DNA from: an uncultured Anaerolineales bacterium
Lineage (GTDB): Bacteria > Chloroflexota > Anaerolineae > Anaerolineales > Villigracilaceae
DNA: 50,904 bases
Assembly (NCBI GenBank): GCA_949319575.1
Contig: CASGHD010000108.1
Span: 1 to 50,904 of the forward strand
Direction: 5' to 3'
Below, piece after piece: positions 30,568-50,777 of this stretch. The notes beneath the pieces are model-generated. The model did no database searches. It was not told where the DNA came from and saw nothing but the letters and a program-made list of their open reading frames with translations. Positions within the stretch are counted from its first letter, which is position 1; the number at the start of each line of letters is the position of its first letter. A program made the position numbers and the translations under genes.

Positions 30568-32934
30568 ATGGCTCAGCCTGAAACAAGCAGAGCAACGCTA
30601 GAGAAAAAACCGTCTGTGCAAACCGCCCGATCGCAGAACGGGTCGGCCGTGTCTTCACGAGAGGAATATCTCGCGCTTCTCAATGAGATGACGCATGCCA
30701 TCCTGCTCGCGGATAATTTTGACGCCACCTTAAATGCGTTGGCGCTCGACATGGCCAGGCTGGTCGGCGCGGATGATTGTTACATCACGCGGTGGGACGA
30801 GGAAAGAAGGCTAACCATCCCCACCGTAACGACGGCGAGCCTTCCATTTCAATACTCGCTGGATGCTGAAAAGAATCCTGAAGTTAATTCCTTCACAGCC
30901 TCTGTGTTACGCGCCGAACACGCCCTGGCGGTAGAAGATGTATTCGACTCTCCCCACATCAGCGCGGAGATCGCAACGCGCTATCCAGCGCGTTCGGCGT
31001 TAGGCGTTCCACTGATAGCGAGAGGGCAAAAATTAGGCGCGGCGCTCATTGCCTTTAACACGCCCCATCAATTTACTTCGGAAGAGATCGAGCGGGCGGA
31101 GGAGGCTGGCAACCTGGTCTCGTTGGCGCTTTGGAACTTCCAACAGAGCGCCGAATTACAACATCGGCTCAATGAAAGCCATGTGTTGGCAAAGATCGGG
31201 CGCGCCCTCAGTGAAACCGAGCGAGTCAGCACCAGCGGGGTATTGCAATTGATCGTTGATTCTGCCCGCGAACTCATCCCCCAAGCTGAGAAAAGCGTCA
31301 TCCATCTTTTAGAGGCGGAAGAGCAGGCTCTCTTTGCTCATGCCGTTTCCGGCTTCGGCGAGGCTGAAAAAGGATTCGGGCGGGTAAAAATGCGTTTAGG
31401 AGAAGGCGTTGCAGGGCAGGTGATCCGCGAGGGGGTCACGATCAATATTGGGGATATCCGGACCCATCCAGATTTTATACGCGGCGATTCGTTGCCCGAA
31501 TTTCGATCCTTGCTGGTTGCGCCGGTGCGCAGTGGCAGCCAACAGATCGGCACGATCAGCGTTCAAAGCGCCCGGTCAAGCGCCTTTTCGATGAAGGATG
31601 CCGAGTTACTGAACGCCCTGGGCATACAAGCCGCGATTGCCATCGAGAACTCGAATTTGTTCGAGAATACGCAACAACGGTTAAAAGAGGTGGGGGCGCT
31701 ATACCGAACCAGCCGCGGATTGGCGGCATCGCTGGATACCGACGAATTGATCGAGGAGGTCGTAAAACTTCTTCATCATAACTTTGGTTATTATCACGTC
31801 CAGATCTATTTGATCGAACCGGATAGCAGGAACCTGGTGATCCATCACGGCAGTGGGTACATTGGAGACGAGCTTGTGCAACAAGGGCACTACCTCCCTT
31901 CCGGCGAGGGGATCGCCGGTCATGTGGCAGAAACCGGTGAGCCGTTTATCACCAACAGCGTCGACGAGGTGGTTTTCTTCAAGCGAAGCCCCTTACTGCC
32001 GGAAACACAGTCTGAAATTGCCGTGCCGATCAAGATCGAAAATCAGGTGGTGGGCATTTTAGACATTCAGCAAACTCCGCCACACAAACTCACGGAAAGC
32101 GACCTGCAACTCATGGTTGCCGTTGCCGACCAACTGACAGTCGTTTTGCAAAAAGCCAATTTATATAACAACCTGCAAACCGCTTTACAGCAGGAACAAA
32201 CGATTCGCTCGCAATTGATCCAAAGCGAGCGACTGGCGCTGGTGGGGCGTTTGCTCGCGTCTGTTTCGCACGAGTTGAACAATCCCTTGCAGGCGATTCA
32301 GAACGCGTTGTTCCTTTTAAAAGAGGAGACGAACCTTTCTCATCAGGCAATGCTAGACCTGGATGTTATTCTGGCGGAGGCGGAACGCATGGCGGCGTTG
32401 ATCGAACGCCTGCGAAGCGCATACCGCCCGATGCGCATGATGGACTTCCAACCTGTGGAACTCAATGATTTGATCGAGGACGTTCACACCCTGATCACCA
32501 CGCACATGCGCCAAAAAGAAATTGCTTTTGAATTTTTTCCGGGCGCCAACCTTCCAGCGATTTCAGGGGTATCAGATCAGATTCGGCAGGTGGTGTTGAA
32601 TTTATTCCTCAACGCGGTCGAGGTGATGAAGCCCGGTGGGCGTCTCATTGTTCAGACGAAAGGTTTGATCGCACAACACGAAGTTCGCTTCACCATCAAA
32701 GATACCGGGCCGGGCATCGACCCTGAAATTCTTCCCAAAGTATTCGACGCCTTCATCACCAGCAAACACACAGGCACCGGGCTTGGGCTTACGATCACGC
32801 ACGATATCATCCAACAACATCATGGACGGATTGAAGCGGCGAATGATCCGCAAGGCGGGGCGATCTTCACCGTTTGGCTACCCATTCACGAGGAGGCAAC
32901 GCATGACATCCAGCGGTCACATCCTGATCATTGA
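30568..32934 (+). CDS. soluble histidine kinase with three GAF domains
   Basis: The 788-residue protein has no membrane segment. Three GAF domains occupy about 30-195, 210-360 and 375-525, a HisKA domain has the phospho-acceptor His568 in SVSHELNNPLQAI, and the HATPase domain has N-box LFLNAVEV, DTGPGIDPE and GTGLGLTI. GAF domains bind small ligands or form dimer contacts. It follows rny after 21 bases and overlaps the next gene, an OmpR-type regulator, so the two are likely a cognate pair. Confidence 0.9.
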   Translation: MAQPETSRATLEKKPSVQTARSQNGSAVSSREEYLALLNEMTHAILLADNFDATLNALALDMARLVGADDCYITRWDEERRLTIPTVTTASLPFQYSLDAEKNPEVNSFTASVLRAEHALAVEDVFDSPHISAEIATRYPARSALGVPLIARGQKLGAALIAFNTPHQFTSEEIERAEEAGNLVSLALWNFQQSAELQHRLNESHVLAKIGRALSETERVSTSGVLQLIVDSARELIPQAEKSVIHLLEAEEQALFAHAVSGFGEAEKGFGRVKMRLGEGVAGQVIREGVTINIGDIRTHPDFIRGDSLPEFRSLLVAPVRSGSQQIGTISVQSARSSAFSMKDAELLNALGIQAAIAIENSNLFENTQQRLKEVGALYRTSRGLAASLDTDELIEEVVKLLHHNFGYYHVQIYLIEPDSRNLVIHHGSGYIGDELVQQGHYLPSGEGIAGHVAETGEPFITNSVDEVVFFKRSPLLPETQSEIAVPIKIENQVVGILDIQQTPPHKLTESDLQLMVAVADQLTVVLQKANLYNNLQTALQQEQTIRSQLIQSERLALVGRLLASVSHELNNPLQAIQNALFLLKEETNLSHQAMLDLDVILAEAERMAALIERLRSAYRPMRMMDFQPVELNDLIEDVHTLITTHMRQKEIAFEFFPGANLPAISGVSDQIRQVVLNLFLNAVEVMKPGGRLIVQTKGLIAQHEVRFTIKDTGPGIDPEILPKVFDAFITSKHTGTGLGLTITHDIIQQHHGRIEAANDPQGGAIFTVWLPIHEEATHDIQRSHPDH

Positions 32935-33709
32935 CGATGAAGTCAGCCTGCGTCAGACGCTAGCGCGCATCCTTCAACGCGCGGGGTTTGAGGTGACCAC
33001 CGCCGCCAACGGCGCGGAGGGGTTTTCTCTCGTCTCCCAGCATCTCTTCGATCTGGTGTATCTGGACATTCGTATGCCGGACATGAGCGGGTTGGAACTG
33101 CTCAAAACCATCCATGCGAAATACCCGGATCTCCCGGTCATTTTGTTCACCGCGCAACCCGACCTGAATTCGGCGGTGGAGGCGTTGAGAAACGGGGCAA
33201 CCGATTATTTACTGAAGCCGCTCAAACCTCAGGCAGTGGTCGAACGCACGAATTCCATTTTGGCAAACCAACAAAAAGAACGACGCAAACGCGAACTGCT
33301 AAGGCAAATCGACTCGTTGCAAGACGAACTCAACGCGCTGGAAAGCCCGCAGGGAGAGAAAACTCACCTGAAGCCGGAGCAGGCGTCCACTGCGGATGAC
33401 CGCTTCCTCAAGCGCGGCGCGCTCACGCTTGATTTGCACACCCGCCGCGTCACAATGAACGATCGCGTCATCAACCTCCCCCCCACTTCATTTGATTATC
33501 TATTATCGTTGGCGCGTCACACTCCGAATGTGGTGGATTATCAGACTTTGGTTTCAGAGTCGCAGGGCTACGAAGCGGATATGCGCGAGGCGCAGGAACT
33601 CACGAAGTGGCACATCCATCACATTCGCCAGGCAATCGAGCCAGACTCGCGCAACCCGGTTCATGTGATCAATGTGCGGGGAAGCGGCTATCGGCTTGTG
33701 ACCGCTTAA
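32903..33709 (+). CDS. OmpR-type response regulator
   Basis: The 268-residue protein has an N-terminal receiver (ILIIDDEVSLRQTL, phospho-Asp in LVYLDIRMPDMSG, conserved Thr and Lys in ILFTAQ and LLKPL), a short Gln/Glu linker, and a C-terminal winged helix (RRVTMNDRVINLPPTSFDYL to HVINVRGSGYRLV). It is the only protein in the signalling block with a clear DNA-binding domain. ATG 32903 has GAGGAGG upstream, inside the 3-prime end of the preceding kinase gene. Confidence 0.92.
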   Translation: MTSSGHILIIDDEVSLRQTLARILQRAGFEVTTAANGAEGFSLVSQHLFDLVYLDIRMPDMSGLELLKTIHAKYPDLPVILFTAQPDLNSAVEALRNGATDYLLKPLKPQAVVERTNSILANQQKERRKRELLRQIDSLQDELNALESPQGEKTHLKPEQASTADDRFLKRGALTLDLHTRRVTMNDRVINLPPTSFDYLLSLARHTPNVVDYQTLVSESQGYEADMREAQELTKWHIHHIRQAIEPDSRNPVHVINVRGSGYRLVTA

Positions 33710-33718
33710 GGATCCGTA

Positions 33719-33737
33719 CCGCAACGTTTACTTTGCG
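33719..33737. repeat. GCAA-GTT-ACTTTGC repeat, copy 1
   Basis: The phrase cgcaacgtttactttgcgc is nearly self-complementary and is related to the hairpin at 46708-46731. Confidence 0.4.
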
Positions 33738-33821
33738 CTTGCATGGGGAATGCAAACTTTTGCCAACTTTATCAAATCAAACCAAACGGTAAAACATCGG
33801 GGTTCAGAGAAAATTGGGGCA

Positions 33822-36146
33822 ATGAACCCAAGCGCTCTTCCCACGGTAGACGCGCCCGTCAAAATCCTCGTCGTAGACGATCACCCGAACGCGGCGACGA
33901 TGTTGGCGCGCGCCATTTCGCAATTAGGCACCCAGGTAAAAGTTGCCTCAGCCACCAACGGCAATGATGCGTTGCAACACGCGAGAAATGAAGCGGTGGA
34001 TATTTTGATCACCGACATGGTTATGCCGGAGATGACCGGGTTGGAATTGATCGAGCGCTTGAACAGCAACCCCTTGGGCAGGCCGGCATTTTCCTTTCTG
34101 ATCACCGCGTATGATGTGCCGGGGTTGACGGTCAGCGCGAGACGCCTCAAGGTGAAGGAAGTCATCGTCAAACCGGTTCATCCGGAGCGAATTTGCCAGA
34201 TCGTTACGCGAGCCATAAATGAAATGAACCAGACGAAGACCGCTCGCAACGAGCCTGCTCCCCAGAAACCATTCACCATTTTGATCGCCGACGACCAGCC
34301 CGATAACCTCACATTACTTGCCCGCTATTTAAGCAACGAGGGATATAAACACATCAAAGCCAAAGACGGCGTCGAAACGCTGGCAATGGCGCGCAGTCAC
34401 ATGCCCGACCTCGTGCTCCTCGACATCAACATGCCGCGCAAGGATGGCTTTGCCGTTCTGGAGGAGGTCCGCGCTGACCCTGTCATACAACATATTCCCG
34501 TGATCATTCTCACGGCGGCGCGACTCGACCCCAGCGAGGTGCAATCGGGGCTGAACATGGGCGCAGACGACTATGTGACCAAGCCGTTTGACCGCCGCGA
34601 ACTTCTTGCCCGCATCCGCACCAAACTGCGTGTCAAGCAGGCGGAGGATGTCATCCGCCGGCGCAATCGTGAACTGAACTTATTGCCTGAAATCGGCAAG
34701 GAATTGAGCGCGCGGCTTAACATCGACGAATTGACAACCGTGTTGCTCAAACGCGCGGTGGAGACTCTGGGGGCAATGTTCGGTCATATTCTGATCTTAA
34801 ATACAACGGAAACCTACGAAAAAACTTTTCATCTCTTACCTTCCTCCTCCCCATTTACACTGCCGCAGGGATTGCTTGAAATCGTCAAAGAGTCTCGCCA
34901 TGGATTTATCGTGGACGACACGCAAAACGATCCGCTCTGGCGCAATGAAAAAGAGGTTTTCACCGGCTCCGCTGTCGTTGTCCCCATGTTTGGCAGGCAT
35001 AGCCTGCTGGGAATCGTCGTCCTCACCAATGAGCAAACCAAATACTTTACCCTCGATCATCTGCTATTAATGCAAGCCATTACCAGCCAGGCAAGCATCG
35101 CGCTGGAGAACGCCCAGCTATACAACACCATGGCGCAGGAACAACAGCAATTAGCCGCTGTCTTGCAAAACGCGGCAGACGCGATTCTTGTGTTCGATGC
35201 GGAACAGCGGCTGTCTCTCGTTAACCCAGCCGCTCAAAAACTGTTTACCGATTACGAGACAAACATCGGGCAAACACTGGACGCGGGCGCCGGATACGAT
35301 TCATTTATCGAACTGCTCGCCCAAACGCGGGATAAGAACGATTCATTCGCAGGGGAGGTTGTTTGGCCCGACCGACGCGTTTTCTCCGCTTCGATCACCC
35401 CCCTTCGGCAGGGCGGGTGCGTCGTCGTCTTACACGATGTCACTCACTTCAAAGAGCTGGAACGCGTCAAGGATGAGTTCATTGCGATTGCATCCCACGA
35501 TCTGCGAAACCCGATCACATCCATCAAAGGCTTCGGGCATCTCATCAGACAGGCGGGTCCGCTTAACGACCACCAGAGCGAGTTTGTAGAACGCATTCAA
35601 GGCTCCGCTGAAAGCATGAGCGAACTCGTGGAGAATCTGCTCGATCTGGCAAAAATGGATTTGGGCGCGGAGCCTGAGTTTGAAGTTCTGGATGTAACCC
35701 ACGCCTTGTTGAAACTCGCGGATGAATTCCAACCACAGGCAGAAGCAAAGGGGCTGTCGCTCACGCTGGGGAAAACAGAGACCAACTCCCACGTGTGGGG
35801 AGACGCGTTGAAGATCCGCCAGGCTTTAAGAAATTTGCTCGGCAATGCCGTCAAGTACACGCCGGACGGCGGCGCGATTTCGCTTTCTTCTGAAAATCGA
35901 TCCGGGCTGGTGTGCATCCAGGTTCGGGATAGCGGTTATGGAATCCCACCCTCTGACTTGCCACACATCTTCGACCGTTTCTATCGGGTGCGAAACAATG
36001 GGCATGACGATGTGAAGGGCAATGGCTTGGGGTTGGCTATCGTAAAAATGATCGCCGGTGAACACGGCGGAGACGTGGCTGTGGAGAGTAAACAAGGCGA
36101 AGGAACCCGTTTCAGCCTGACCTTGCCGTTGATCGCCGAAGCATGA
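33822..36146 (+). CDS. hybrid histidine kinase with two N-terminal receivers, GAF and PAS
   Basis: The 774-residue protein carries receiver 1 (about 13-130; ILVVDDHPNA, ILITDMVMPEMTG), receiver 2 (about 150-275; ILIADDQPDN, LVLLDINMPRKDG), a GAF region (about 290-435), a PAS-like domain (about 440-545), HisKA with phospho-acceptor His in ASHDLRNPITS near residue 559, and HATPase (LRNLLGNAVKYTPDGG, GNGLGLAIVKM). Tandem receivers at the N-terminus put two phospho-inputs in front of the kinase, so it can receive phosphate from another kinase as well as sense a ligand. ATG 33822 is preferred; the frame could also begin at 33750. Confidence 0.87.
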   Translation: MNPSALPTVDAPVKILVVDDHPNAATMLARAISQLGTQVKVASATNGNDALQHARNEAVDILITDMVMPEMTGLELIERLNSNPLGRPAFSFLITAYDVPGLTVSARRLKVKEVIVKPVHPERICQIVTRAINEMNQTKTARNEPAPQKPFTILIADDQPDNLTLLARYLSNEGYKHIKAKDGVETLAMARSHMPDLVLLDINMPRKDGFAVLEEVRADPVIQHIPVIILTAARLDPSEVQSGLNMGADDYVTKPFDRRELLARIRTKLRVKQAEDVIRRRNRELNLLPEIGKELSARLNIDELTTVLLKRAVETLGAMFGHILILNTTETYEKTFHLLPSSSPFTLPQGLLEIVKESRHGFIVDDTQNDPLWRNEKEVFTGSAVVVPMFGRHSLLGIVVLTNEQTKYFTLDHLLLMQAITSQASIALENAQLYNTMAQEQQQLAAVLQNAADAILVFDAEQRLSLVNPAAQKLFTDYETNIGQTLDAGAGYDSFIELLAQTRDKNDSFAGEVVWPDRRVFSASITPLRQGGCVVVLHDVTHFKELERVKDEFIAIASHDLRNPITSIKGFGHLIRQAGPLNDHQSEFVERIQGSAESMSELVENLLDLAKMDLGAEPEFEVLDVTHALLKLADEFQPQAEAKGLSLTLGKTETNSHVWGDALKIRQALRNLLGNAVKYTPDGGAISLSSENRSGLVCIQVRDSGYGIPPSDLPHIFDRFYRVRNNGHDDVKGNGLGLAIVKMIAGEHGGDVAVESKQGEGTRFSLTLPLIAEA

Positions 36147-36245
36147 GACCAACAACTTTCCCCAACTTTTCCACGCGCAACCCCATCTGCCAGAGCGGTT
36201 ATTTCGCTGAAAATAGGTATCAACCATATTGAAAGGAAAAATATT

Positions 36246-37244
36246 ATGACAAACAAAAAGTTCCCGCAAAAATTATGGACGGCGCTCACAGCCTTGATCC
36301 TGCTCGCCATGCTGGCGAGCGGGTGCGCAAGCGCCCCAACCCCAAAGTCCTACACGGTTGGGGTAATCGTGGAGATCAATTGGTTAAGCCCAATCTTCGA
36401 TAATTTCAAAACCACGATGACCGAGTTGGGCTACGTGGAAGGTGAAAACATCACCTATCTTTATAACCCTGAAGTAGGACCCGACCAGGCGGCATTCGAT
36501 GCCGAGGCGCAACGGTTGATGGAACAAAAAGTGGATATCTTTTTTACGGTTGGCACGATGACTACAAAAGCCGCAAAGAAAGCGGTGGAGGGAACGGATA
36601 TCCCGGTGGTGTTCACCCCGGTAATCAACCCTATTGAAGAAGGCGTGGTGGCGAGTATAGCCAACCCCGGCGGCAATGTGACCGGCGTGCAAATTGTGGA
36701 TCACTCTCCCAAAGGCCTCGAGTGGGCGCTCAAGATCGCTCCGCAAACCAAATTTGTGTATATGCCTTACAACCCCGCCGACACAATTAGCATGATGATC
36801 GTCAATGGCGGCATGTTGGAAGCCATTTCTCAGTTAGGCGTCGAGTTGGCGCCGAGTGAAGTAACCAGCGTGGACGAGATGCTGGCGCGCGTCGATACTT
36901 TGCCGGAAGATACAATCATTTTCCTGCTTTCGCCACTCTCCAGTTTGGAAGGCGGGTTGGAGAAACTGAGCCAGTTGGCGAAGGAACGCGGCGTTCCGGT
37001 TTTTTCCACCAACCGCGAAATTGGCGCGTCGCCCTTCCCTGTGGCGAATTACACAGTGACGATGGACGGCGAGGCTGAGCAAGGGGCGAACATGGTAGAC
37101 CGTATTCTCAAAGGACAAAAGCCAGCCGATATGCCCGTTGAAACTGCCGAATACTTCCTGGATATTGACCTGAAATCTGCCGAAGCCTATGGCATTCAAA
37201 TCCCGGATGAGATTGTCAAACAGGCGAACGTGATCATTCGCTAA
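36246..37244 (+). CDS. orphan ABC-type substrate-binding lipoprotein (ABC_sub_bind family)
   Basis: The 332-residue protein has a lipoprotein signal ending ASGC (Cys27) and the two-lobed ABC_sub_bind (PF04392) fold: YTVGVIVEINWLSPIF, VDIFFTVGTMTTKAAKKAV, IPVVFTPVINPIEEGVV, NPGGNVTGVQ, and the closing domain RGVPVFSTNREIGASPFPVA. Some relatives bind tryptophan or tyrosine; the ligand here is unknown. No permease or ATPase gene is near it. It lies directly before a dCache-type sensor, so a role in presenting ligand to signalling proteins is possible. Confidence 0.85.
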   Translation: MTNKKFPQKLWTALTALILLAMLASGCASAPTPKSYTVGVIVEINWLSPIFDNFKTTMTELGYVEGENITYLYNPEVGPDQAAFDAEAQRLMEQKVDIFFTVGTMTTKAAKKAVEGTDIPVVFTPVINPIEEGVVASIANPGGNVTGVQIVDHSPKGLEWALKIAPQTKFVYMPYNPADTISMMIVNGGMLEAISQLGVELAPSEVTSVDEMLARVDTLPEDTIIFLLSPLSSLEGGLEKLSQLAKERGVPVFSTNREIGASPFPVANYTVTMDGEAEQGANMVDRILKGQKPADMPVETAEYFLDIDLKSAEAYGIQIPDEIVKQANVIIR

Positions 37245-37254
37245 GATAACCACA

Positions 37255-37292
37255 TTCCAGACCCTGAAGGCTTATTGCTTTGGGGTCTGGAA
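37255..37292 (+). terminator. hairpin between the binding protein and the sensor gene
   Basis: TTCCAGACCC pairs with GGGTCTGGAA around a long loop, followed by AACCTCTT. With no T-run it may only attenuate transcription. Confidence 0.6.
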
Positions 37293-37355
37293 AACCTCTT
37301 GAGTACGGTATCGAATGCTACGCGTTCTAACGTTCTTGACAGATGGAGATGATAG

Positions 37356-39101
37356 ATGAGAAAAAGTTTACGAACCCGGTTGACAGTCTACTTTATTGCC
37401 CTGGTGATGGCGCCCTTGTTGCTTATCGGAGCCATTGGAACCTGGCAAACCTACACTACCGAGGTTCCTCACACTCTGGAATCCCAGGATCAGGTCGCAA
37501 AACGCGTGGCTGAACAAGTCAGAAACTTCATCGAGGGGCGTGAAACCGAATTGCGCTCGCTGACCGACATCAACGACTTTTCGAACGCCACGCGGGAAGA
37601 ACAAGTTATTCTTCTTTCCAATCTGTTTTCAAACCAGACGGTGTATGAGGAACTCATTCTGACAAACGGCCAAGGCAGAGAATTACTCTTCCTCTCCCGT
37701 TTGAAGGTGGTCACGCCGGAGGAATTTAGCAATCGCGCCGGGTCCGATGAATTTGAAAAACCGAAAGAAACAGGCGCCACCTATTTTAGCCCCATCTCTT
37801 TCAATGAATTGACGGGCGAACCGTATATGGTCGTTTCGGTTCCAGCGCTTGATTTAAGAAGCGGCAAACTCGATTACGTGCTGATTGCCAAATTTCGGTT
37901 CAAGTCGGTGTGGGATCTCATGGGGCAGGCAGACGTGGTTGGCGGCGGCGCGGTCTATATGACCGACAATAGCGGTTTCGTGGTTGCCCATGCCAATCCT
38001 TCTTTTGTGTTGAAGAAGGCGCAAATCACGCCGCCGTCAGAAAGTTCATTTACAACCGGAATTACCGGGGTTTCTTCCGCCCTGGCTGTCGAGCCGATCA
38101 CATTCGGCGAACAAACCTTCTACGTGCTAGCCGAACAGCCCGCATCTGAAGCGTTAGCCCTGGCTCGCAATAACATCATTCTAACAACGATCGCGACCCT
38201 GATCGCGATGGTCGTAGCCGGTTTCTTGGGGGTGCTTGCCGCCCGCCAGATCACCAACCCGATCAGCGAATTAGCCGCAACGGCGCAATTGATCAGCGAA
38301 GGCGACCTGACCCGGACGACGGACATCCGGGCGAACGATGAAATCGGCGCGCTGGCGGCGGCTTTCAATCGTATGACCACCCAATTGCGCGACTTGATCG
38401 GCTCTTTGGAGCAACGCGTGGCAGACCGCACAAAGGCGTTGAATACGTCCACCGAAGTGAGTCGTCGGTTGTCTACGATTTTGGATCAAAAGGAACTGGT
38501 CGCCGAAGTCGTTGAACAGGTTCAGAAGGCGTTCAACTACTACCACGCGCACATTTATCTGCTCAACGAAACAAACGGGGAACTGGTGATGGCAGGCGGC
38601 ACAGGGGAAGCCGGGCAAACCCTGCTGGCGCGCGGGCACACGATCTCCAAAGGGAAAGGCTTGGTGGGTCGCGCGGCGGATACAAACTCAATCGTGCTTG
38701 TATCCGATACATCGTCCAACCCGGATTGGCTGCCCAACCCATTATTGCCCGAGACCAAATCGGAAGTTGCCGTGCCGATCTCCATTGGCGTTGAGGTGCT
38801 CGGCGTGTTGGACGTGCAACATAATGTGACAGACGGGTTGAATCAGGAAGATGCGGACCTGCTCCAGTCCATCGCGAATCAGGTCGCCATCGCGGTTAGA
38901 AACGCGCGCTCGTACACCGAGGTTCAGGCTCGGGCTGAGCGTGAAACGTTGATCGCATCCATCGGGCAAAAGATCCAAAGCGCTTCCACTGTGGAAAACG
39001 CCTTACAGATCGCCGTACGCGAGCTGGGACGCGCTCTTGGCGCGCAGGATACGCGCGTGGTGTTGAAAACCGTCAAGTCTAACGGTCGCAGCTCAGCATG
39101 A
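37356..39101 (+). CDS. membrane sensor with Cache, HAMP and GAF domains but no kinase domain
   Basis: The 581-residue protein has membrane helix 1 (about 8-27), an extracellular double-Cache-like domain (about 30-265), helix 2 (about 272-296; [20 protein letters not shown]), HAMP (about 297-350; [20 protein letters not shown]), a coiled segment, and a GAF domain (about 375-530; [31 protein letters not shown]). It ends in a helix [17 protein letters not shown], then stops without HisKA or HATPase. It may form mixed complexes with the next protein, the large kinase, whose N-terminal architecture is the same and whose gene starts 37 bases on. Confidence 0.85.
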
Positions 39102-39138
39102 GGATCAGGCTCAATTCGATTGGGAAAGAATAACCGTG

Positions 39139-42100
39139 ATGACGAATCTCCCTCAACCACCAAAAGCTAATCACAACGAATCTGCGGGCGAAAATATGCA
39201 GAGGCGGATAAAGAAATTATTCTCCGAGCAGGAACCGCCCTCGTATGCCAGCCTCCGCGAGGTGGACGCGATGAAGGCGCGCATTCACGAACTGGAAGCG
39301 GAACTCGCCCGGCAACTCGAATCGCAACAGGCAAGCGAACCGACTGCGGAGGAAGCGCCGGCGGCAGTTCAAGGGGCTGAGGGGCAGGATGTCTCCCCCA
39401 ACGTATCGCTGTCAACCGATGCGAGCGCGCGCGATACCAATCGCCATCCGTTTGGATTCCTTGCGTCCCGCTCGTTACGTCGTAAATTGGTAGTGACGTT
39501 CGTCGGGATCGCGCTTGTATCCATCAGCGCGGTGGGCTTTGTAACCAACCGGGTTACCACCGCTCAATTCAATGAAGAGTTGGGCGCGAACTTTAGCGAG
39601 ATCGCGTCGCACATGGCGCGCGGCACCGGCGATTCGGTGCTGGCAAATAAATTAACGCTGGATGGGCTTGTCCTCAACAAATTCATTCAAGACGGCGCGG
39701 AAGATAAAAATAAATATGGCACGCCAAACGTGTTGTACATGGACGACCTCGATCAACAGTGGCTTGCCGCGAGCGATGATAACCCGCTGATCCAACGGGT
39801 CTTAACCAATACCATGGCTGTGGAACTGCGAAAATTTCAGGCTCGCCTGCCGCAATATGCGGAGCTTTTCATCACAGACTCGCACGGCGCGATCATCGCC
39901 TCCACAGACCGAACAAGCGATTATTACCAAGCCGATGAAGCCTGGTGGCAGGGCGCCTGGAACGGCGGAAGCGGCGATGTCTTTATCAGCCAGCCGGAAT
40001 TCGATGAAAGCGCCGGCGTATATGCGATCGATATGGCAATGCCCATCACGAATCAGGACAATGACGCAATCGTCGGGATCCTGCGCGCAACGGTTAACCT
40101 CAACGAATTGACAAGCCTGCTCTCCGCCGGTCAGTTTGGCGAAACAGGCGAGGCGGTTCTCGCGCTACCGAACGACCAATTTATCAGCAAGGATACGGGC
40201 GCCGCATTAAGCGCATTGGACCCGGAGACAATTTCAGGAATTTCAAAGATGGCTGGCGTGTACGACACCATCCCATTTAATGGCGTCCCCAGCCTGATGA
40301 GCAAAGCGCCGGTCTCCTCATCAGGAAAGGGGCCCGAGAACGTCATCATCCAAAACCTTGGGTGGACGATCGTGATCCATCAAGACCTGGATGAAGCCAA
40401 CCAGCCGATTACAGCCACCACGCGGGGAATTATATTTACCGCAATCGGCGTGATCGCCCTGGCGAGTCTCCTGGCGTTCGTCGTTGGCGGTCAATTGGCA
40501 AAGCCCATCGAAAACCTGATCGCTGTCGCCAACCAATTCGCCGCCGGCAACTTATCGGCAAAAGCCGACGATACGGCAAAGGATGAGATCGGCACACTCG
40601 CAAACACATTCAACCGCATGGCTATCCAATTACGCGAAACATTGCTCGGATTGGAACAACGCGTCGCCGCCCGCACACACGACCTTGAATTGGCTTCCGA
40701 AGTTGGGCGCGCCATCACAGAAAAAATGGGAAATCTTTCTGAAATGCTTGCCAATGCGGCGGAAACCACCCGCTCCAAGTTTGACCTGTATTACACGCAA
40801 GTGTATCTGGTGGATTCCTCCGGGCGGAACCTGGTCTTGCGCGCCGGCACAGGCGACGTGGGAACGCAACTCTTGCAACGCGGTCATCGCCTCTCGCTTT
40901 TAGCCAACTCGTTGAACAGCCGCGCGGCTTCAAGCCGACAACCCGTGCTCGTAAATGACACGCAGAAAAGCGCCAACTTCCTGCCCAATCCGCTTTTGCC
41001 TCTCACGCGTTCCGAACTTTCCGTTCCATTAGTTGCCAACAACATCGTTATGGGCGTGTTGGACATGCAGAGCAAAAAGCCTGAAACATTTAGCGAAGCG
41101 AACCTCCCCGCGTTCCAGATCCTGGCTGGGCAACTTGCCATCGCGATTCAAAACTCCATGTTGTTTGACAAGGCGGAGGATTCGCGCGCCGATGTGGAAG
41201 AACAAGCCCGCCGCCTGACGTCCACCGGCTGGCAAGAGTTCTTAAACGCCGTCGACCGCAGTGAGAATTTCGGCTATGTGTTCGACCAGGGCGAAGTCCT
41301 GCCGCTTGTAGCGGCAGAGAACACCACCTTAGACAACGCGCTGGCTGTTCCCATTCAAATTACAGGAGCCAGGGTTGGCGAGATCCGTCTGGCTGATGAA
41401 GCCTCCCGTCAGTGGACAAAAGCCGAAACTGAAATTGTGACGGCAACCGCCTCTCACATGGCGCAACACATCGAAAACCTGCGCCTGCTTGCCCAGGCGG
41501 ACCAATATCGCGCCGAAGCCGAACAAGTGTCGCGCCGCCTCACCAGCGAAGGCTGGAGGGAATTCCTCCGCGCGCGTACCGAACTTGCTGATGGTTACTT
41601 CTACAACCAGAGCCAAGTCCAGCCGTTGAATGGAAATGGGCATAACACAACTACGCCTGCAATGTCGTTTCCTTTAGTTGTGCGCGAAGAACAGATTGGC
41701 GAGTTTACGTTCGACGCAAAGGGAAATGCTCAAAAACACGAATCCGAACTCGTCACGGCGGTCATCCAGCAATTAAGCGACCACATCGAAAACCTGCGCC
41801 TGCTGGAACAAGCCGAACAAAAGCGGCTCGAGCTGGAAACTGTGGCAACCGTATCCAGCACAGCCTCCACCGTGCTCGACCCCGATAAACTTCTGCAAGC
41901 CGTGGTGGATTTGACCAAAGAACGCTTCGGTCTGTACCACGCCCACATCTACCTCGCGGACGAAAGTTGGAACACGTTGCTACTCGCCTCTGGCGCAGGG
42001 GAAGTTGGTCGCGCATTGGTGGCGCAGAAGCACGCCATTGCGACAGACGCGGAACGGTCGCTGGTCGCCCGCGCCGCGCGTGACCGCGAATCCGTGATCG

Positions 42101-43086
42101 TGAACGATGTACGAAGCCAGCCGGACTTCCTCCCCAACCCCCTGCTGCCCGAAACTCGCGCGGAACTGGCTGTTCCCATGATCGTCGGCGACAAAGTATT
42201 AGGCGTGTTCGACGCGCAGTCCAACCATGCAAGTGGATTCACAAAGGAAGACGCGAGCATTTACTCGACACTTGCTTCACAAGTCGCTGTCGCTTTGCAA
42301 AACGCCCGCTTGTATGTGGAACAAGCCGCCACAGTAACTCAACTGCGCGAACTCGACCGCCTCAAATCCTCCTTCCTCGCCAACATGTCGCATGAGTTGC
42401 GCACGCCGATGAACTCGATCCTCGGCTTCACCGACGTAATGCTCGAAGGCTTGGATGGCGAGCTGACCGAAAATATGGATAACGACCTGCGCCTCATCCA
42501 GAAGAACGGGCAGCACCTCCTGCACCTCATCAACGATGTGCTCGATATGGCAAAGATCGAATCGGGCAAGATGAACCTGAACCTCGAAAAATTCAAAGTG
42601 CGCAATGTGTTCGATGAAGTCACAAGCATTACCTCCACGCTGGTAACCGACAAAAATCTCTCGCTTTCCGTCGCGGAGACCTCCGATCAAACCATTGAAA
42701 TTTACGCCGACAACACGCGCCTGCGGCAAGTGATGATCAACCTCGTGAACAACGCCATCAAATTTACCGAAAAAGGCAAGATCGTTCTCTCCGCTACGCC
42801 CATGGATGGCGCAAGAGTGTTGATCTCAGTCACAGATACCGGCATTGGCATTCCACCTGATACCCTCGAAGCGGTATTTCAAGAGTTCACACAAGTCGAT
42901 TCCTCCACCACGCGCAAAGCGGGCGGCACAGGCTTGGGCTTGCCGATCAGCCGCCGCCTTGTCGAAATGCACGGGGGCCGCTTGTGGGCGGAAAGCGCCG
43001 GCATCCCCGGCGAAGGCTCGACGTTCTTTGTCGAAATGCCTCTCGAAGCGCGCATCACAGAAGTTGTGGAAAAACAGGAATCATAA
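39139..43086 (+). CDS. large histidine kinase with Cache, HAMP and multiple GAF-type modules
   Basis: The 1315-residue protein has an N-terminal coiled coil (about 10-75), membrane helix 1 (about 115-135), an extracellular double-Cache domain (about 140-415), helix 2 (about 430-450), HAMP (to about 505), a GAF domain (about 515-680), two tandem modules that each begin RRLTS-GW-EFL (about 690-797 and 798-905), a second GAF (about 910-1070), HisKA with His1085 in ANMSHELRTPMNSI, and HATPase (MINLVNNAIKFTEKGK, GTGLGLPISRRLV). No receiver is attached. The stop codon abuts the start of the PLP-REC fusion, which makes that protein a candidate partner. Confidence 0.88.
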   Translation: MTNLPQPPKANHNESAGENMQRRIKKLFSEQEPPSYASLREVDAMKARIHELEAELARQLESQQASEPTAEEAPAAVQGAEGQDVSPNVSLSTDASARDTNRHPFGFLASRSLRRKLVVTFVGIALVSISAVGFVTNRVTTAQFNEELGANFSEIASHMARGTGDSVLANKLTLDGLVLNKFIQDGAEDKNKYGTPNVLYMDDLDQQWLAASDDNPLIQRVLTNTMAVELRKFQARLPQYAELFITDSHGAIIASTDRTSDYYQADEAWWQGAWNGGSGDVFISQPEFDESAGVYAIDMAMPITNQDNDAIVGILRATVNLNELTSLLSAGQFGETGEAVLALPNDQFISKDTGAALSALDPETISGISKMAGVYDTIPFNGVPSLMSKAPVSSSGKGPENVIIQNLGWTIVIHQDLDEANQPITATTRGIIFTAIGVIALASLLAFVVGGQLAKPIENLIAVANQFAAGNLSAKADDTAKDEIGTLANTFNRMAIQLRETLLGLEQRVAARTHDLELASEVGRAITEKMGNLSEMLANAAETTRSKFDLYYTQVYLVDSSGRNLVLRAGTGDVGTQLLQRGHRLSLLANSLNSRAASSRQPVLVNDTQKSANFLPNPLLPLTRSELSVPLVANNIVMGVLDMQSKKPETFSEANLPAFQILAGQLAIAIQNSMLFDKAEDSRADVEEQARRLTSTGWQEFLNAVDRSENFGYVFDQGEVLPLVAAENTTLDNALAVPIQITGARVGEIRLADEASRQWTKAETEIVTATASHMAQHIENLRLLAQADQYRAEAEQVSRRLTSEGWREFLRARTELADGYFYNQSQVQPLNGNGHNTTTPAMSFPLVVREEQIGEFTFDAKGNAQKHESELVTAVIQQLSDHIENLRLLEQAEQKRLELETVATVSSTASTVLDPDKLLQAVVDLTKERFGLYHAHIYLADESWNTLLLASGAGEVGRALVAQKHAIATDAERSLVARAARDRESVIVNDVRSQPDFLPNPLLPETRAELAVPMIVGDKVLGVFDAQSNHASGFTKEDASIYSTLASQVAVALQNARLYVEQAATVTQLRELDRLKSSFLANMSHELRTPMNSILGFTDVMLEGLDGELTENMDNDLRLIQKNGQHLLHLINDVLDMAKIESGKMNLNLEKFKVRNVFDEVTSITSTLVTDKNLSLSVAETSDQTIEIYADNTRLRQVMINLVNNAIKFTEKGKIVLSATPMDGARVLISVTDTGIGIPPDTLEAVFQEFTQVDSSTTRKAGGTGLGLPISRRLVEMHGGRLWAESAGIPGEGSTFFVEMPLEARITEVVEKQES

Positions 43087-44745
43087 ATGGCAACGCCCAA
43101 GCATTTGGAATGTAATCTCTGCGGCAACCAACAGCCATACGAACCGCTCGTTCCCGCAGTTTGCAAAAAATGCGATTCGCAATGGCTCGAAGCGCGCTAC
43201 GATTACAACGCGTTCAAGCGCGACATTCTACGCGGACTACCCAACCGCCCGTCCAACATGTGGCGTTATCAGGATGTCCTCCCGCTGAACGATCCCGCCT
43301 CGTTGGACCTCTACCCCGCCGGCGGGACTCCGCTCTGGCTGTCGCAACGCTTCGCCCCGGACCTGGGGCATGATTCAGTGTACATCAAGGACGAACGCTA
43401 CGGGCCGACCTCCTCCTTCAAAGATCGTCAGGCGGCTGGAGCCGTGGCGGCAATGTCTGAAAAAGGCGTGAAAGAAGCGGTGATCGCATCCACAGGCAAC
43501 GCGGCGGTCGCGTATGCCGCCGCCTGCGCAAGGGCGGGCATCAAACTGTGGGTCTTCATGACCAGCCTCGTGCCGCAGGAAAAACTGCGCGAAGCGGCAT
43601 TATTCGGCGCGGAAGTGATTCGCGTCAGCGGCAATTACGATCAAACCAAACAGATCGCGGCGCAGTTCGCGCAACGCCGCCAACTTTTGTTGGACCGCGG
43701 CGCAACCTCCATCCCCGCGCGCGAGGCGATGAAAACCATCGCATACGAAATTGTGGAACAACTGAACTGGCATGCGCCCGATTGGTACATCCAGGCAGTC
43801 AGCGGCGGGTTGGGACCGCTGGGTGTGTATCAGGGCTTCAAAGAATTATTCAACATGGGTCTCATTGACCGAATCCCCAAACTCGGAATTATTCAAGCGG
43901 AAGGCTGCGCGCCGATGGTAAACGCCTTCAAAGCCGGTAAAGATTCCGCCGAAGTGGTGATTCCTGAAACCAGTATCATTATTTTATCTACTGGCGATCC
44001 CGGGAAAGCGTATTCTTATTTATGGAATCTCACCCAGCAATTTGGCGGCGTGATGGAATCGGTGACCGATGCCGAGGCATTCTCAGCGATGCGCGCGCTC
44101 GCCAAAAGCGAAGGGATGGCTGTCGAACCGGCGACAGCCGTCGCCTTCGCGGGACTCGAGAAGTTAATCCGCAATGGCGCGATCAAAGCCGATGAGAAAG
44201 TTGTCGTCAATTGCACGGGTCACACCTTCCCCGTCGAAAAGCATGTGCTTGGCGATCAATGGGCGGTGGATGTACACTTGAGCAAAGATCAATCCCCCGC
44301 GCCGCGCGAAGGCTTGCAAGCCGCGCTTGAAAATTTGGATGAAAAGACAACCACCGTCTTGCTCGTGGACGATAACGCCGACGATGCCTTGCTCATCCGC
44401 CGTTTGCTTGAAGGGCATAAAGCCTACCGCGTCTATCATGCCAAAGACGGCTGGGAAGGTTTGGCGATGGCGCGGCAAAAACTGCCCGACCTGATCGTCT
44501 CCGACCTCACCATGCCCGGCATTGACGGTTTTGGATTCGTGGAAGAATTAAAACTCGACCCGCGCACGAAAGATATTCCCGTTGTCGTCGTCAGCGCGAA
44601 AGATATCACAACAGAAGAGCGAAAACGTTTGAACGGACACATTCAAGCAGTGTATCAAAAAGGCTCGTTATCCACGAAAAAATTTGTGGACCAGGTAATC
44701 CATGTGATCGAAGAATCCAGCGAGCCGACAGGAGAAAAAACATGA
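43087..44745 (+). CDS. threonine-synthase-like PLP enzyme fused to a response-regulator receiver domain
   Basis: The 552-residue protein begins with a zinc-ribbon-like region (CNLCG and CKKC), followed by a threonine-synthase-type PLP domain: Lys112 in TSSFKDRQA, phosphate-binding ASTGNAAVAYAAACARAG, IQAVSGGLGPLGVYQGF and VVNCTGHTFPVE. From about residue 421 comes a complete receiver: acidic pair in VLLVDDNADD, phospho-Asp473 in VSDLTMPGIDGF, Ser in VVVVSAKD and Lys in VYQKGS. Threonine synthase makes threonine from phosphohomoserine; whether this copy does so is unproved. The domain pair is unusual, and the reading frame runs through without a break. It abuts the large kinase gene and overlaps the next receiver gene in ATGA. 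Confidence 0.92.
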   Translation: MATPKHLECNLCGNQQPYEPLVPAVCKKCDSQWLEARYDYNAFKRDILRGLPNRPSNMWRYQDVLPLNDPASLDLYPAGGTPLWLSQRFAPDLGHDSVYIKDERYGPTSSFKDRQAAGAVAAMSEKGVKEAVIASTGNAAVAYAAACARAGIKLWVFMTSLVPQEKLREAALFGAEVIRVSGNYDQTKQIAAQFAQRRQLLLDRGATSIPAREAMKTIAYEIVEQLNWHAPDWYIQAVSGGLGPLGVYQGFKELFNMGLIDRIPKLGIIQAEGCAPMVNAFKAGKDSAEVVIPETSIIILSTGDPGKAYSYLWNLTQQFGGVMESVTDAEAFSAMRALAKSEGMAVEPATAVAFAGLEKLIRNGAIKADEKVVVNCTGHTFPVEKHVLGDQWAVDVHLSKDQSPAPREGLQAALENLDEKTTTVLLVDDNADDALLIRRLLEGHKAYRVYHAKDGWEGLAMARQKLPDLIVSDLTMPGIDGFGFVEELKLDPRTKDIPVVVVSAKDITTEERKRLNGHIQAVYQKGSLSTKKFVDQVIHVIEESSEPTGEKT

Positions 44746-45140
44746 CAGCCCCTGTCGTTCTATACATCGAAGATCACCCGGATAATATGACGCTTGTTCG
44801 GCGCATCTTACACTCGGAAAGTTATACGATGATCGAAGCCTGCACCGGCTTGCAGGGAATCTTCCTTGCCGAAACCGAAGAGGTGGATTTGATTCTGCTG
44901 GACATCAACCTCCCCGACATTGACGGCTACGAAGTTGCCCGCCGGTTACGCGCCAGCCAAAAAACCAGGCTGGCTGAGATACCCATCATTGCCATAACCG
45001 CCAACGCCATGAGAGGCGACGACGAAAAGATACTCGAGTCGGGTTGCAACTTTTACCTATCGAAACCCATTAACATCCAGGAACTTATAGACACCATGGA
45101 AGGATTAATTCAGACGGAAGCGCGAGGAGTGAGATCATGA
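44742..45140 (+). CDS. stand-alone receiver protein (DivK-like), copy 1
   Basis: The 132-residue single-domain receiver has acidic pair VLYIEDHPDN, phospho-Asp in LILLDINLPDIDGYEVARRL, switch Thr in IIAITANAMRGD, and Lys in YLSKPINIQEL. There is no output domain. It overlaps the genes on both sides in ATGA, so the genes are translationally coupled. It is a clear paralogue of the next gene and could carry phosphate between kinases or compete with the enzyme-linked receiver. Confidence 0.92.
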   Translation: MTAPVVLYIEDHPDNMTLVRRILHSESYTMIEACTGLQGIFLAETEEVDLILLDINLPDIDGYEVARRLRASQKTRLAEIPIIAITANAMRGDDEKILESGCNFYLSKPINIQELIDTMEGLIQTEARGVRS

Positions 45141-45520
45141 CCCAAACACACAATATTCTCTATGTGGAAGACAACCCGGATAACACCATGCTCGTCAAAC
45201 GCGCGTTGGAAGCGCGCGGGTACAAGCTATTGCATTCGCCCACCGGCATAGATGGCGTTGCAAAGGCAGAGAGCGAAGACGTAAGCCTGATCCTGCTTGA
45301 TATCAACCTGCCGGATATCGACGGCTACGAAGTGGCGCGGCGGTTACGCGCCAGCGCAAAACGCGAACTCACCTCGGTGCCGATCATTGCCATCACCGCC
45401 AATGCGTTAAAGGGCGATGCGGAAAAAGCGCTGGAAGCCGGTTGCGATGTGTACATGTCCAAGCCGATCAATATCCGCGAGTTATGGGCGCGCGTGGAAG
45501 CGTTTGTCCCGACCCCATAA
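45137..45520 (+). CDS. stand-alone receiver protein (DivK-like), copy 2
   Basis: The 127-residue receiver shares long identical blocks with copy 1 (LILLDINLPDIDGYEVARRL, KPINI). The acidic residues are in ILYVEDNPDN and the switch Thr in IIAITANALKGD. It is probably a tandem duplication. The threonine synthase gene follows after 4 bases. Confidence 0.92.
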   Translation: MTQTHNILYVEDNPDNTMLVKRALEARGYKLLHSPTGIDGVAKAESEDVSLILLDINLPDIDGYEVARRLRASAKRELTSVPIIAITANALKGDAEKALEAGCDVYMSKPINIRELWARVEAFVPTP

Positions 45521-45524
45521 AACC

Positions 45525-46700
45525 ATGACCGCCTCTTATTTATCTCATCTACTCTGTTCGGGGTGCGGCGAGAAGTATTCGCATGAGGAACTCCACACCT
45601 TCTGCCCGGTGTGCCAGTCGCCGCTTCTCTCGGTGTACGATTTGAAAAAAGCGCGCGGAAGCGTAGACCGGGAAGAGATTGCGCGTCGCAAAAAAGGGAT
45701 GTGGCGCTGGGAAGAATTCCTCCCTGTGCTTCACCGCGAAAATCAAATCTTCCTCGGCGAAGGCGATACTCCTTTGCTTTCCCTGCCCCACCTGGAAAAA
45801 CAGTTGGGGCTGACAAATCTTTTTGTGAAAGATGAAAGCAGTAACCCAACCGGCTCATTCAAAGCGCGCGGGCTGGCGGCGGCAGTTTCCAAAGCGAAAG
45901 AACTCGGCGTGGAAAAAGCGATCATCCCCACCGCAGGCAATGCGGGCGGCGCGATGGCGGCATACGCCGCGCGCGCGGGCTTGAGGGCGCACATCTTCAT
46001 GCCGAAAGACACGCCGCTTGCCAATATCGAAGAGAGTCGTATGACCGGCGCGGAAGTCATTCTCGTGGACGGTCTCATCAGCGACGCGGCTGGCATGGCG
46101 GGTATCAAAGCGCGCGAGGAAGGCTGGTTCGATGTTTCCACGTTCAAAGAACCGTATCGCGTGGAAGGTAAAAAAGTGATGGGCTATGAACTCGCCGAAG
46201 CCTTCGATTGGCAACTCCCCGATGTGATCGTGTATCCCACCGGCGGCGGCACAGGTCTCGTGGGCATGTGGAAAGCCTTTGCCGAACTCGAAGAATTGGG
46301 CTGGCTCGAAAACACCAAACGCCCGCGCATGGTTTCTGTGCAAGCCGAAGGATGCGCGCCCGTGGTCAAAGCCTTTCAGGCAAAAGCGGATTTCTGCGAC
46401 TTTTGGACGAACGCGCGCACCGTCGCTTCCGGCTTGCGCGTGCCGAAGAGTTTTGCAGACCATATCATCATGCACGACATTTACGAAAGCAACGGGACCG
46501 CCATCGCGGTGAGCGACGAAGCGCTTCTCGAATCGCAGGGACAGCTGGCGCGCGCCGAGGGAATCTTTGCCGCCCCCGAAGGCGCAGCCACGTTAGCCGC
46601 GCTGAAAGAGTTAATGGCTCAAGGCTGGGTTCAGAAAGACGAAAAAATCGTTTTGTTCAACACAGGGTCGGGGTTGAAATATTTAGATCACAAAAGTTAG
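45525..46700 (+). CDS. thrC: threonine synthase
   Basis: The 391-residue PLP enzyme has an N-terminal zinc-ribbon-like part (CSGCG, CPVCQ), Lys113 in NPTGSFKARG, TAGNAGGAMAAYAARAG, YPTGGGTGLVGMWKAF and VLFNTGSGLKYLD. It is a more typical threonine synthase than the fused copy: same fold and similar zinc ribbon, but no receiver. It would make threonine from O-phosphohomoserine. The start is ATG 45525; the longer frame from 45417 runs through the receiver gene. A terminator-like palindrome follows the stop. Confidence 0.88.
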   Translation: MTASYLSHLLCSGCGEKYSHEELHTFCPVCQSPLLSVYDLKKARGSVDREEIARRKKGMWRWEEFLPVLHRENQIFLGEGDTPLLSLPHLEKQLGLTNLFVKDESSNPTGSFKARGLAAAVSKAKELGVEKAIIPTAGNAGGAMAAYAARAGLRAHIFMPKDTPLANIEESRMTGAEVILVDGLISDAAGMAGIKAREEGWFDVSTFKEPYRVEGKKVMGYELAEAFDWQLPDVIVYPTGGGTGLVGMWKAFAELEELGWLENTKRPRMVSVQAEGCAPVVKAFQAKADFCDFWTNARTVASGLRVPKSFADHIIMHDIYESNGTAIAVSDEALLESQGQLARAEGIFAAPEGAATLAALKELMAQGWVQKDEKIVLFNTGSGLKYLDHKS

Positions 46701-50202: not shown

Positions 50203-50376
50203 AGGGCTATTTCCATAATTGGAAGGGCGCGCGGCGAGCCGTCCACTTCAGACTGTCGCTCGCCGACCTTCTTCATTCCCATTTTCTCATAAAATCCTAT
50301 CGCATTCGGATCCGTTTCGAGTTGTAGGGTTTTGTAATTGCGGTGACAAGCGTCAACCCCTTCGACAAGCTCAGGA
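50199..50376 (-). pseudogene. GNAT acetyltransferase, C-terminal remnant
   Basis: Read on the minus strand, the frame ending at TGA 50201-50199 gives NYKTLQLETDPNAIGFYEKM and GMKKVGERQ..., ending PIMEIAL. The stretch DPNAIGFYEKMGM is the typical last helix and strand of a GNAT acyltransferase. Upstream the family sequence is lost where the PELVEG-type repeat (50357-50375) begins, so the acetyl-CoA binding part is missing. Confidence 0.7.
50357..50375. repeat. ttcgacaagctcagg repeat at the GNAT/RHS junction
   Basis: This short dispersed repeat lies exactly where the GNAT remnant on one strand gives way to RHS sequence on the other. Confidence 0.6.
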
Positions 50377-50428
50377 CATCGCCCGAAACGGGATCACCTG
50401 ACACATATTCGTATGATGCCAACGGCAA

Positions 50429-50450
50429 CCCTTCGACGGGCTCAGGGCGG
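50429..50450. repeat. ttcgacgggctcagg repeat inside the RHS fragment
   Basis: The insert encodes PSTGSGRR between YDANGN and MICRIENG, which normally follow each other closely in RHS repeats. Confidence 0.6.
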
Positions 50451-50532
50451 CGAATGATCTGCCGCATCGAAAATGGAGTCACCTACACCCACGCCTACAA
50501 CGCGGAGAATCGCGCCTCTAGCATCGCCAAAC

Positions 50533-50637
50533 GACCCCCTCCGTCCTACGGACACCTCCCCCAAATCCAACGAGGAAAACTTTGTATGCGGATTCAAAAT
50601 ATGAATGTCGGATTTGGGGGAGGGCAGGGTGGGGGTC
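50533..50637 (+). mobile_element. MITE-like palindromic element, copy A
   Basis: The 105-bp element starts GACCCCCTCC and ends GGGGGTC, with inner arms cctcccccaaatcc and ggatttgggggagg. It carries no coding gene. Its reverse complement matches copy B at 50778-50877 over both arms, while the loop differs. Confidence 0.7.
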
Positions 50638-50777
50638 GGCGTCCGCGTTGGGACGGTCCACTTCACCGGCGCGAGCGGGACTCCCGACTCGACCACGTCC
50701 TATTACATGGGTGGCTCGTATGAAATAAAAGACTCCGCTGTCAAGAAATATTACAGCATTGCCGGGATGATGGTTGC

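What the first reader, a model, noticed from the sequence alone, without database searches (positions are those of the whole stretch)
43087..44745. Threonine-synthase-like enzyme fused to a phospho-receiver domain
One uninterrupted frame joins a PLP enzyme of the threonine synthase type (Lys112, zinc-ribbon cysteines) to a full receiver with phospho-Asp473, switch Ser and Lys. The gene abuts a large histidine kinase gene. This would put an amino-acid biosynthetic step under direct two-component phosphorylation rather than transcriptional control. Known receiver outputs are mostly DNA-binding, GGDEF or phosphatase domains; I know of no described threonine synthase-REC protein, though I cannot search.
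Basis: partly seen in the sequence, partly recalled or inferred. Interest (0 to 1): 0.88.

Follow-up and report, generated by a model that had tools for sequence, protein, structure and literature searches.

The report
PLP enzyme fused to phosphorylation switch
In many Chloroflexota bacteria an enzyme that resembles threonine synthase (a vitamin-B6 enzyme) is joined in one protein to a signalling receiver domain and is usually encoded directly after a sensor kinase gene, so its activity is likely switched directly by phosphorylation, and its substrate is probably not the usual one of threonine synthase.

Summary
The fusion is real: one 552-aa frame (43087-44745) carries a threonine-synthase-like PLP domain with a four-cysteine ribbon, then a complete receiver (REC). 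It recurs unbroken in 80 of 80 fetched loci and in 42 of 400 genomes of the phylum, as two clades; the window's genome holds one of each. In 118 of 118 aligned fusions the PLP lysine, four cysteines, Asp473, Asp429 and Lys525 are invariant. A histidine kinase gene lies directly upstream in 77 of 77 clade I and 34 of 37 clade II loci. Clade I adds a stand-alone REC (75 of 77) and often an unfused threonine synthase (30 of 68); clade II adds an EamA-type transporter (27 of 34). Best reading: the kinase likely phosphorylates Asp473 and so gates a PLP enzyme whose substrate is unknown, probably an amino acid. Receivers attached to metabolic enzymes are known in general; my searches found no print of this one. 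New variant of a known kind, testable in Herpetosiphon.

The parts
39136..43086 (+). Histidine kinase, 1316 aa: dCache_1, HAMP, two GAF, HisKA, HATPase_c (GTG start at 39136 or ATG at 39139); presumed cognate kinase
   Evidence: stop codon abuts the next start
43087..44745 (+). Fused PALP-REC protein, 552 aa
43111..43173 (+). Four-cysteine ribbon (Cys9, 12, 26, 29), zinc ribbon by resemblance
   Evidence: 118 of 118
43318..44220 (+). PALP domain, fold-type II PLP enzyme (residues 78-378)
   Evidence: Pfam; fold
43420..43422 (+). Lys112 codon, PLP Schiff-base lysine by alignment
   Evidence: 118 of 118; aligns with K62 of the canonical ThrC L001
44347..44718 (+). Receiver domain, residues 421-544, complete (beta-alpha)5 in the model
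44503..44505 (+). Asp473 codon, phospho-acceptor by alignment, at the end of strand beta-3
   Evidence: 118 of 118; model
44742..45140 (+). Stand-alone REC protein R1
45137..45520 (+). Stand-alone REC protein R2; a REC of this kind follows 75 of 77 clade I fusions
45525..46700 (+). Unfused threonine synthase of the PRK08197 kind (579 bits, cut-off 303); next to 30 of 68 clade I fusions

Best explanation
The protein is a PLP enzyme of the threonine-synthase fold joined to an intact phospho-receiver, and the histidine kinase encoded directly upstream likely phosphorylates its Asp473 and thereby switches an enzyme activity whose substrate is probably not O-phosphohomoserine. Shown by sequence: the fusion, its conservation, the retained PLP-site and receiver residues, the kinase neighbour, purifying selection on both domains, and the loss of a threonine-synthase-specific motif. 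Inferred: that the upstream kinase is the phosphodonor, that phosphorylation of the receiver changes catalysis across the low-confidence linker (residues about 398-419), and that the substrate is a small amino acid related to the aspartate or serine families. Suggested history: one fusion event in which a terminal REC like that of an upstream hybrid kinase was added to a duplicated threonine-synthase-like gene, then a duplication into two clades, one keeping a stand-alone REC and often threonine synthase beside it, the other an EamA-type transporter.
Against: No biochemistry. The window protein passes TIGR00260 thrC narrowly (169.6 vs 167.1), and two clade II proteins (G208, G276) pass PRK08197. 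Clade I keeps a basic residue at 212 (78 R and 3 K of 81), one column from the lost Arg, and K166 is kept, so phosphate binding is not excluded for clade I. The neighbour family called threonine synthase (PRK08197) also lacks the NS of the motif (53 of 53), so that motif alone is not decisive. 3 of 37 clade II loci showed no kinase upstream. In the window's genome the nearest non-fused REC is that of another hybrid kinase (window 34275-34538), not of an abutting one. In clade II the receiver lacks the aromatic at 523 (M or L in 36 of 37). The tree is a quick one with long branches. Loci are related by descent, so the counts are not independent.
Confidence: 0.55

Rival explanations
1. It is a true second threonine synthase (O-phosphohomoserine to threonine) put under direct two-component control.
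For: TIGR00260 passed by 2.5 bits; nearest solved structures by sequence are threonine synthases; unfused threonine synthase next door in 30 of 68 clade I loci; basic residue at 212 in 81 of 81 clade I.
Against: An unfused threonine synthase in 42 of 42 carriers and thrC-thrB elsewhere in the own genome; motif replaced in 96 of 96; clade II residue 212 mostly I or V (30 of 37); PRK08197 cut-off not reached by the window protein (251.6 vs 303); long stem.
Confidence: 0.2
2. The PLP domain is a ligand sensor or feedback module rather than a working enzyme: metabolite binding changes the receiver, which acts as a phosphate sink or brake on the upstream kinase.
For: The receiver is C-terminal and most like C-terminal RECs of hybrid kinases; a stand-alone REC follows in 75 of 77 clade I loci, which could be the real output; altered substrate pocket.
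Against: PLP lysine and the residues aligned with the PLP contacts of threonine synthase are kept in 118 of 118, stronger than a mere binding fold would need.
Confidence: 0.17
3. The receiver only tethers or dimerises the enzyme (scaffold), without a phosphorylation-dependent change in catalysis.
For: A PLP enzyme family with a receiver-derived domain is known: the extended decarboxylases of the aspartate-aminotransferase fold (PMC8503589, passages).
Against: Here acid pair, phospho-Asp, S/T and Lys are kept throughout and a kinase adjoins.
Confidence: 0.07
4. Artefact: two genes run together by a sequencing or assembly error.
For: None found.
Against: 80 of 80 loci, 240 of 240 listed homologues.
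Confidence: 0.01

Closest known systems
Threonine synthase (TIGR00260 thrC; solved 2c2b, 1v7c, 2d1f, 6nmx)
   Same: PALP fold, PLP lysine and surrounding residues, about 30% identity; narrow pass of TIGR00260.
   Different: NSxNxxRxEGQKT replaced, new invariants (Q115, A116, Y184, K188, D203, G205, P244, T380), C-terminal receiver; a separate thrC is present.
Cysteate synthase / CapA2 (TIGR03844; 9k3c)
   Different: 132.9 bits against a cut-off of 324.9.
Response regulators with enzymatic output domains (for example KaiC-REC and glycosyltransferase-REC of archaea)
   Same: A receiver attached to an enzyme; PMC5847659 section 14 says REC attached to standard metabolic enzymes was seen repeatedly in bacteria.
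   Different: I found no fold-type II PLP enzyme among those named in what I read; this family is wide (two clades, several families of the phylum) and has a fixed kinase neighbour.
Extended AAT-fold arginine, ornithine and lysine decarboxylases with an N-terminal receiver-derived domain (PMC8503589)
   Same: PLP enzyme with a receiver-derived domain.
   Different: Different PLP fold and N-terminal, there described as receiver-like; here fold-type II, C-terminal, with intact phospho-receiver residues and adjacent kinase.

Membership tests
Threonine synthase | Fold-type II PLP domain with PLP lysine | tested here: met
Threonine synthase | Curated model cut-offs | tested here: inconclusive
   TIGR00260 169.6 vs 167.1 passed; PRK08197 251.6 vs 303 not passed. 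L092 166.9 and L008 158.3 fail TIGR00260; G208 and G276 pass PRK08197
Threonine synthase | NSxNxxRxEGQKT segment of canonical enzymes (its role in holding the substrate phosphate is recalled, not from a call) | tested here: not met
   N, S, R, G, Q replaced in 96 of 96 fused against 29 canonical sequences that keep them at 97% or more
Threonine synthase | Only or housekeeping copy, linked to thrB | tested here: not met
   thrC-thrB on G000:C180; unfused copy in 42 of 42 carriers
Threonine synthase | Makes threonine from O-phosphohomoserine | not testable with these tools
   needs an assay
Cysteate synthase | TIGR03844 cut-off | tested here: not met
   132.9 vs 324.9
Response regulator with enzymatic output | Receiver with acid pair, phospho-Asp, S/T and Lys | tested here: met
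   complete (beta-alpha)5 in the model
Response regulator with enzymatic output | Cognate kinase encoded next to it | tested here: met
   77 of 77 clade I, 34 of 37 clade II
Response regulator with enzymatic output | Phosphorylation changes the output | not testable with these tools
   needs phosphotransfer and kinetics
Receiver-winged AAT-fold decarboxylases | AAT-fold (fold type I) PLP domain behind an N-terminal receiver-like domain | tested here: not met
   the PLP domain is PALP and N-terminal, the receiver C-terminal

The most novel reading that the evidence does not exclude
A family of kinase-gated PLP enzymes in Chloroflexota: a sensor kinase phosphorylates the enzyme itself, which turns over an amino acid in a reaction not catalysed by any named threonine-synthase relative, so that an external signal is converted straight into an amino-acid flux (with a dedicated exporter in clade II) without transcription.
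Probability: 0.35. Interest if true: 0.85.

Novelty: new variant of a known kind. Interest (0 to 1): 0.6.

Why it matters
Most two-component outputs act through DNA, cyclic-di-GMP or protein partners (general knowledge). A widely kept receiver-PLP enzyme beside its kinase would let a sensor set a metabolic flux within the protein. Database entries call many of these proteins threonine synthase, so pathway predictions for Chloroflexota may be wrong. Because the cultured Herpetosiphon aurantiacus DSM 785 carries a full-length member beside a 1877-aa kinase (L092), both the switch and the substrate can be tested directly.

Tried and rejected
Artefact. Housekeeping threonine synthase. Cysteate synthase by curated model. 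I wanted a residue-level alignment to cysteate synthase 9k3c: it ranked behind five threonine synthases, fell below the cut-off and was sixth, so none was shown; the comparison rests on model scores and fold. In one search my count of downstream RECs was wrong because of a label rule (it printed 3 of 76); one search recounted with its own rule (75 of 77 clade I, 1 of 36 clade II). In one search one fused row (L053) was labelled unfused by my motif rule; one search shows it fused. The first AlphaFold2 model (41 rows, mean pLDDT 76.9) was the one used; a second (90 rows, 80.1) was used only for confidence and secondary structure. No model informs on how the two domains pack. The fold lists are filled by the PLP domain; the receiver was placed by Pfam and sequence. 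Amino-acid sensing by the kinase's dCache domain was considered from memory only and dropped. Distribution outside the phylum was not searched genome by genome; the 18 listed homologues whose name gives an organism are all Chloroflexota. The literature library holds only openly licensed PMC papers; the two reviews of response-regulator outputs by Galperin (2006, 2010) are not held, so a mention there cannot be excluded.

Full report
Observation. The frame 43087-44745 is open for 552 codons and holds PALP (78-378) and Response_reg (424-511). The upstream kinase gene (39136-43086: dCache, HAMP, two GAF, HisKA, HATPase) ends with TAA exactly before the ATG; the fused gene overlaps the next REC gene by four bases, and that one overlaps a second REC gene. 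An unfused threonine synthase follows (45525-46700; PRK08197, 579 bits against a cut-off of 303).

Conservation. A scan of 84,980 species' genomes gave 100 loci with a relative, of which the best 80 were kept; 80 of 80 carry the fusion in one frame at 63-96% identity, four of them named Herpetosiphon species. In 400 genomes of the window's phylum, 42 have a match that runs through the receiver: 20 with clade I (63-100%) and 36 with clade II (47-54%), 14 with both, the window's own genome among them (second copy G000:C36:20805-22475, L008) (counted by hand from its rows; the other matches at 33-39% end before the receiver). A second search from Herpetosiphon gave 41 of 400 at E 1e-100 or better; all were carriers found before. 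In a tree of 110 rows the fused proteins are one clade (58 rows, SH-aLRT 100; quick method, long branches, one row mislabelled by my script) with a stem of 1.82 changes per column.

Both domains look alive. In 118 aligned fusions (81 clade I, 37 clade II) the four cysteines, K112, S135-N138, K166, D429, D473 and K525 never vary, and residue 503 is always S or T. dN/dS over seven clade I pairs is 0.03-0.08 for the enzyme and 0.02-0.04 for the receiver; several dS values exceed 1 and are rough. AlphaFold2 gives a complete (beta-alpha)5 receiver with D473 at the end of beta-3, S503 at the end of beta-4 and K525 after beta-5, and a linker (398-419) under pLDDT 50. Departures from the textbook: the Lys is followed by Gly (usually Pro, recalled), and the aromatic at 523 is found in clade I only.

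Neighbourhood. A kinase gene ends within 300 bases upstream on the same strand in 77 of 77 clade I and 34 of 37 clade II loci with enough sequence. As a yardstick, the window's genome has 35 HisKA places in 3.65 Mb. In clade I a stand-alone REC follows in 75 of 77 and an unfused threonine synthase within 3 kb in 30 of 68. In clade II an EamA-family transporter follows in 27 of 34 (family), and the two clade II kinases scanned are hybrids, HisKA-HATPase-REC-REC. One deep member (L113, genome G128) is PALP-REC-REC in one frame with an unfused threonine synthase 129 bases downstream (L203). In six whole genomes searched with the fused receiver, the best non-fused match is the receiver of the kinase directly upstream in G192 and G005; in the window's genome it is a receiver of another hybrid kinase (window 34275-34538). 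This suggests, without proving, that the receiver came from a hybrid kinase beside the enzyme gene.

Substrate. Three lines speak against plain threonine synthase. First, redundancy: 37 of 42 carriers have an unfused protein that matches TIGR00260 at E 1e-60 or better, the other five an unfused PRK08197 protein (the five were checked to lack a receiver tail, as were the 30 fetched TIGR00260 loci). In the window's genome L001 is a textbook threonine synthase (308.6 bits) followed by homoserine kinase (253.1 bits). Second, residues: against 29 canonical sequences, the fused proteins keep the residues aligned with the PLP site but change N155, S156, R161, G164 and Q165 (L001 numbers) in 96 of 96, and have their own invariants. 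That these residues hold the substrate's phosphate is recalled from the Thermus enzyme, not taken from a call. Third, the long stem. Against this: TIGR00260 is passed narrowly by the window protein, though not by L092 or L008; clade I keeps a basic residue one column away; the PRK08197 neighbour also lacks the NS pair. In G064, G072 and G128, which lack a TIGR00260 hit, no homoserine kinase passed the TIGR00191 cut-off, so what the PRK08197 neighbour does there is also open.

Mechanism. Most likely the kinase passes a phosphoryl group to Asp473 and the receiver changes the enzyme's activity. The neighbours (threonine synthase; EamA transporter, a family with amino-acid exporters, recalled) point to an amino-acid substrate or product. 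The phosphotransfer, the change in catalysis and the substrate are inferred.

Literature. Ten full-text searches gave no description of a threonine-synthase or PALP receiver fusion; I saw their listings. In PMC5847659 I saw passages and read section 14: receivers attached to metabolic enzymes are known in bacteria and archaea, mostly with narrow distribution. In PMC8503589 I saw passages: decarboxylases of another PLP fold carry an N-terminal receiver-derived domain. In PMC6210107 I saw passages: 175 two-component genes in a Herpetosiphon, no mention of threonine. Two key reviews are not held.

Verdict. Observation confirmed, interpretation partly supported: a new variant of the known kind 'response regulator with enzymatic output', with a real chance that the enzyme reaction itself is new.

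Noticed in passing
L008 (G000:C36:20805-22475) and L200: The window's genome holds a second, clade II PALP-REC protein with a hybrid kinase upstream and an EamA transporter downstream.
   Followed up: yes
L113:997-3432 (-) and L203: PALP-REC-REC in one frame, a fusion with two receivers, followed by an unfused threonine synthase.
   Followed up: partly
window 30568-43086: A run of same-strand sensory genes: kinase, REC response regulator, double-REC hybrid kinase, a gene that reads like an ABC substrate-binding lipoprotein (36246-37244), and a dCache-HAMP-GAF protein without kinase domains (37356-39101).
   Followed up: partly
window 50343-50723: ORF with an Rhs/YD-like stretch carrying pieces (PFDKLRTSP, STGSGR) that look like short inserted repeats; by eye only.
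   Followed up: no
genomes G064, G072, G128: No homoserine kinase over the TIGR00191 cut-off and no TIGR00260 threonine synthase at E 1e-60; a PRK08197 protein beside the fusion is the unfused copy found there, so its substrate is also uncertain.
   Followed up: partly
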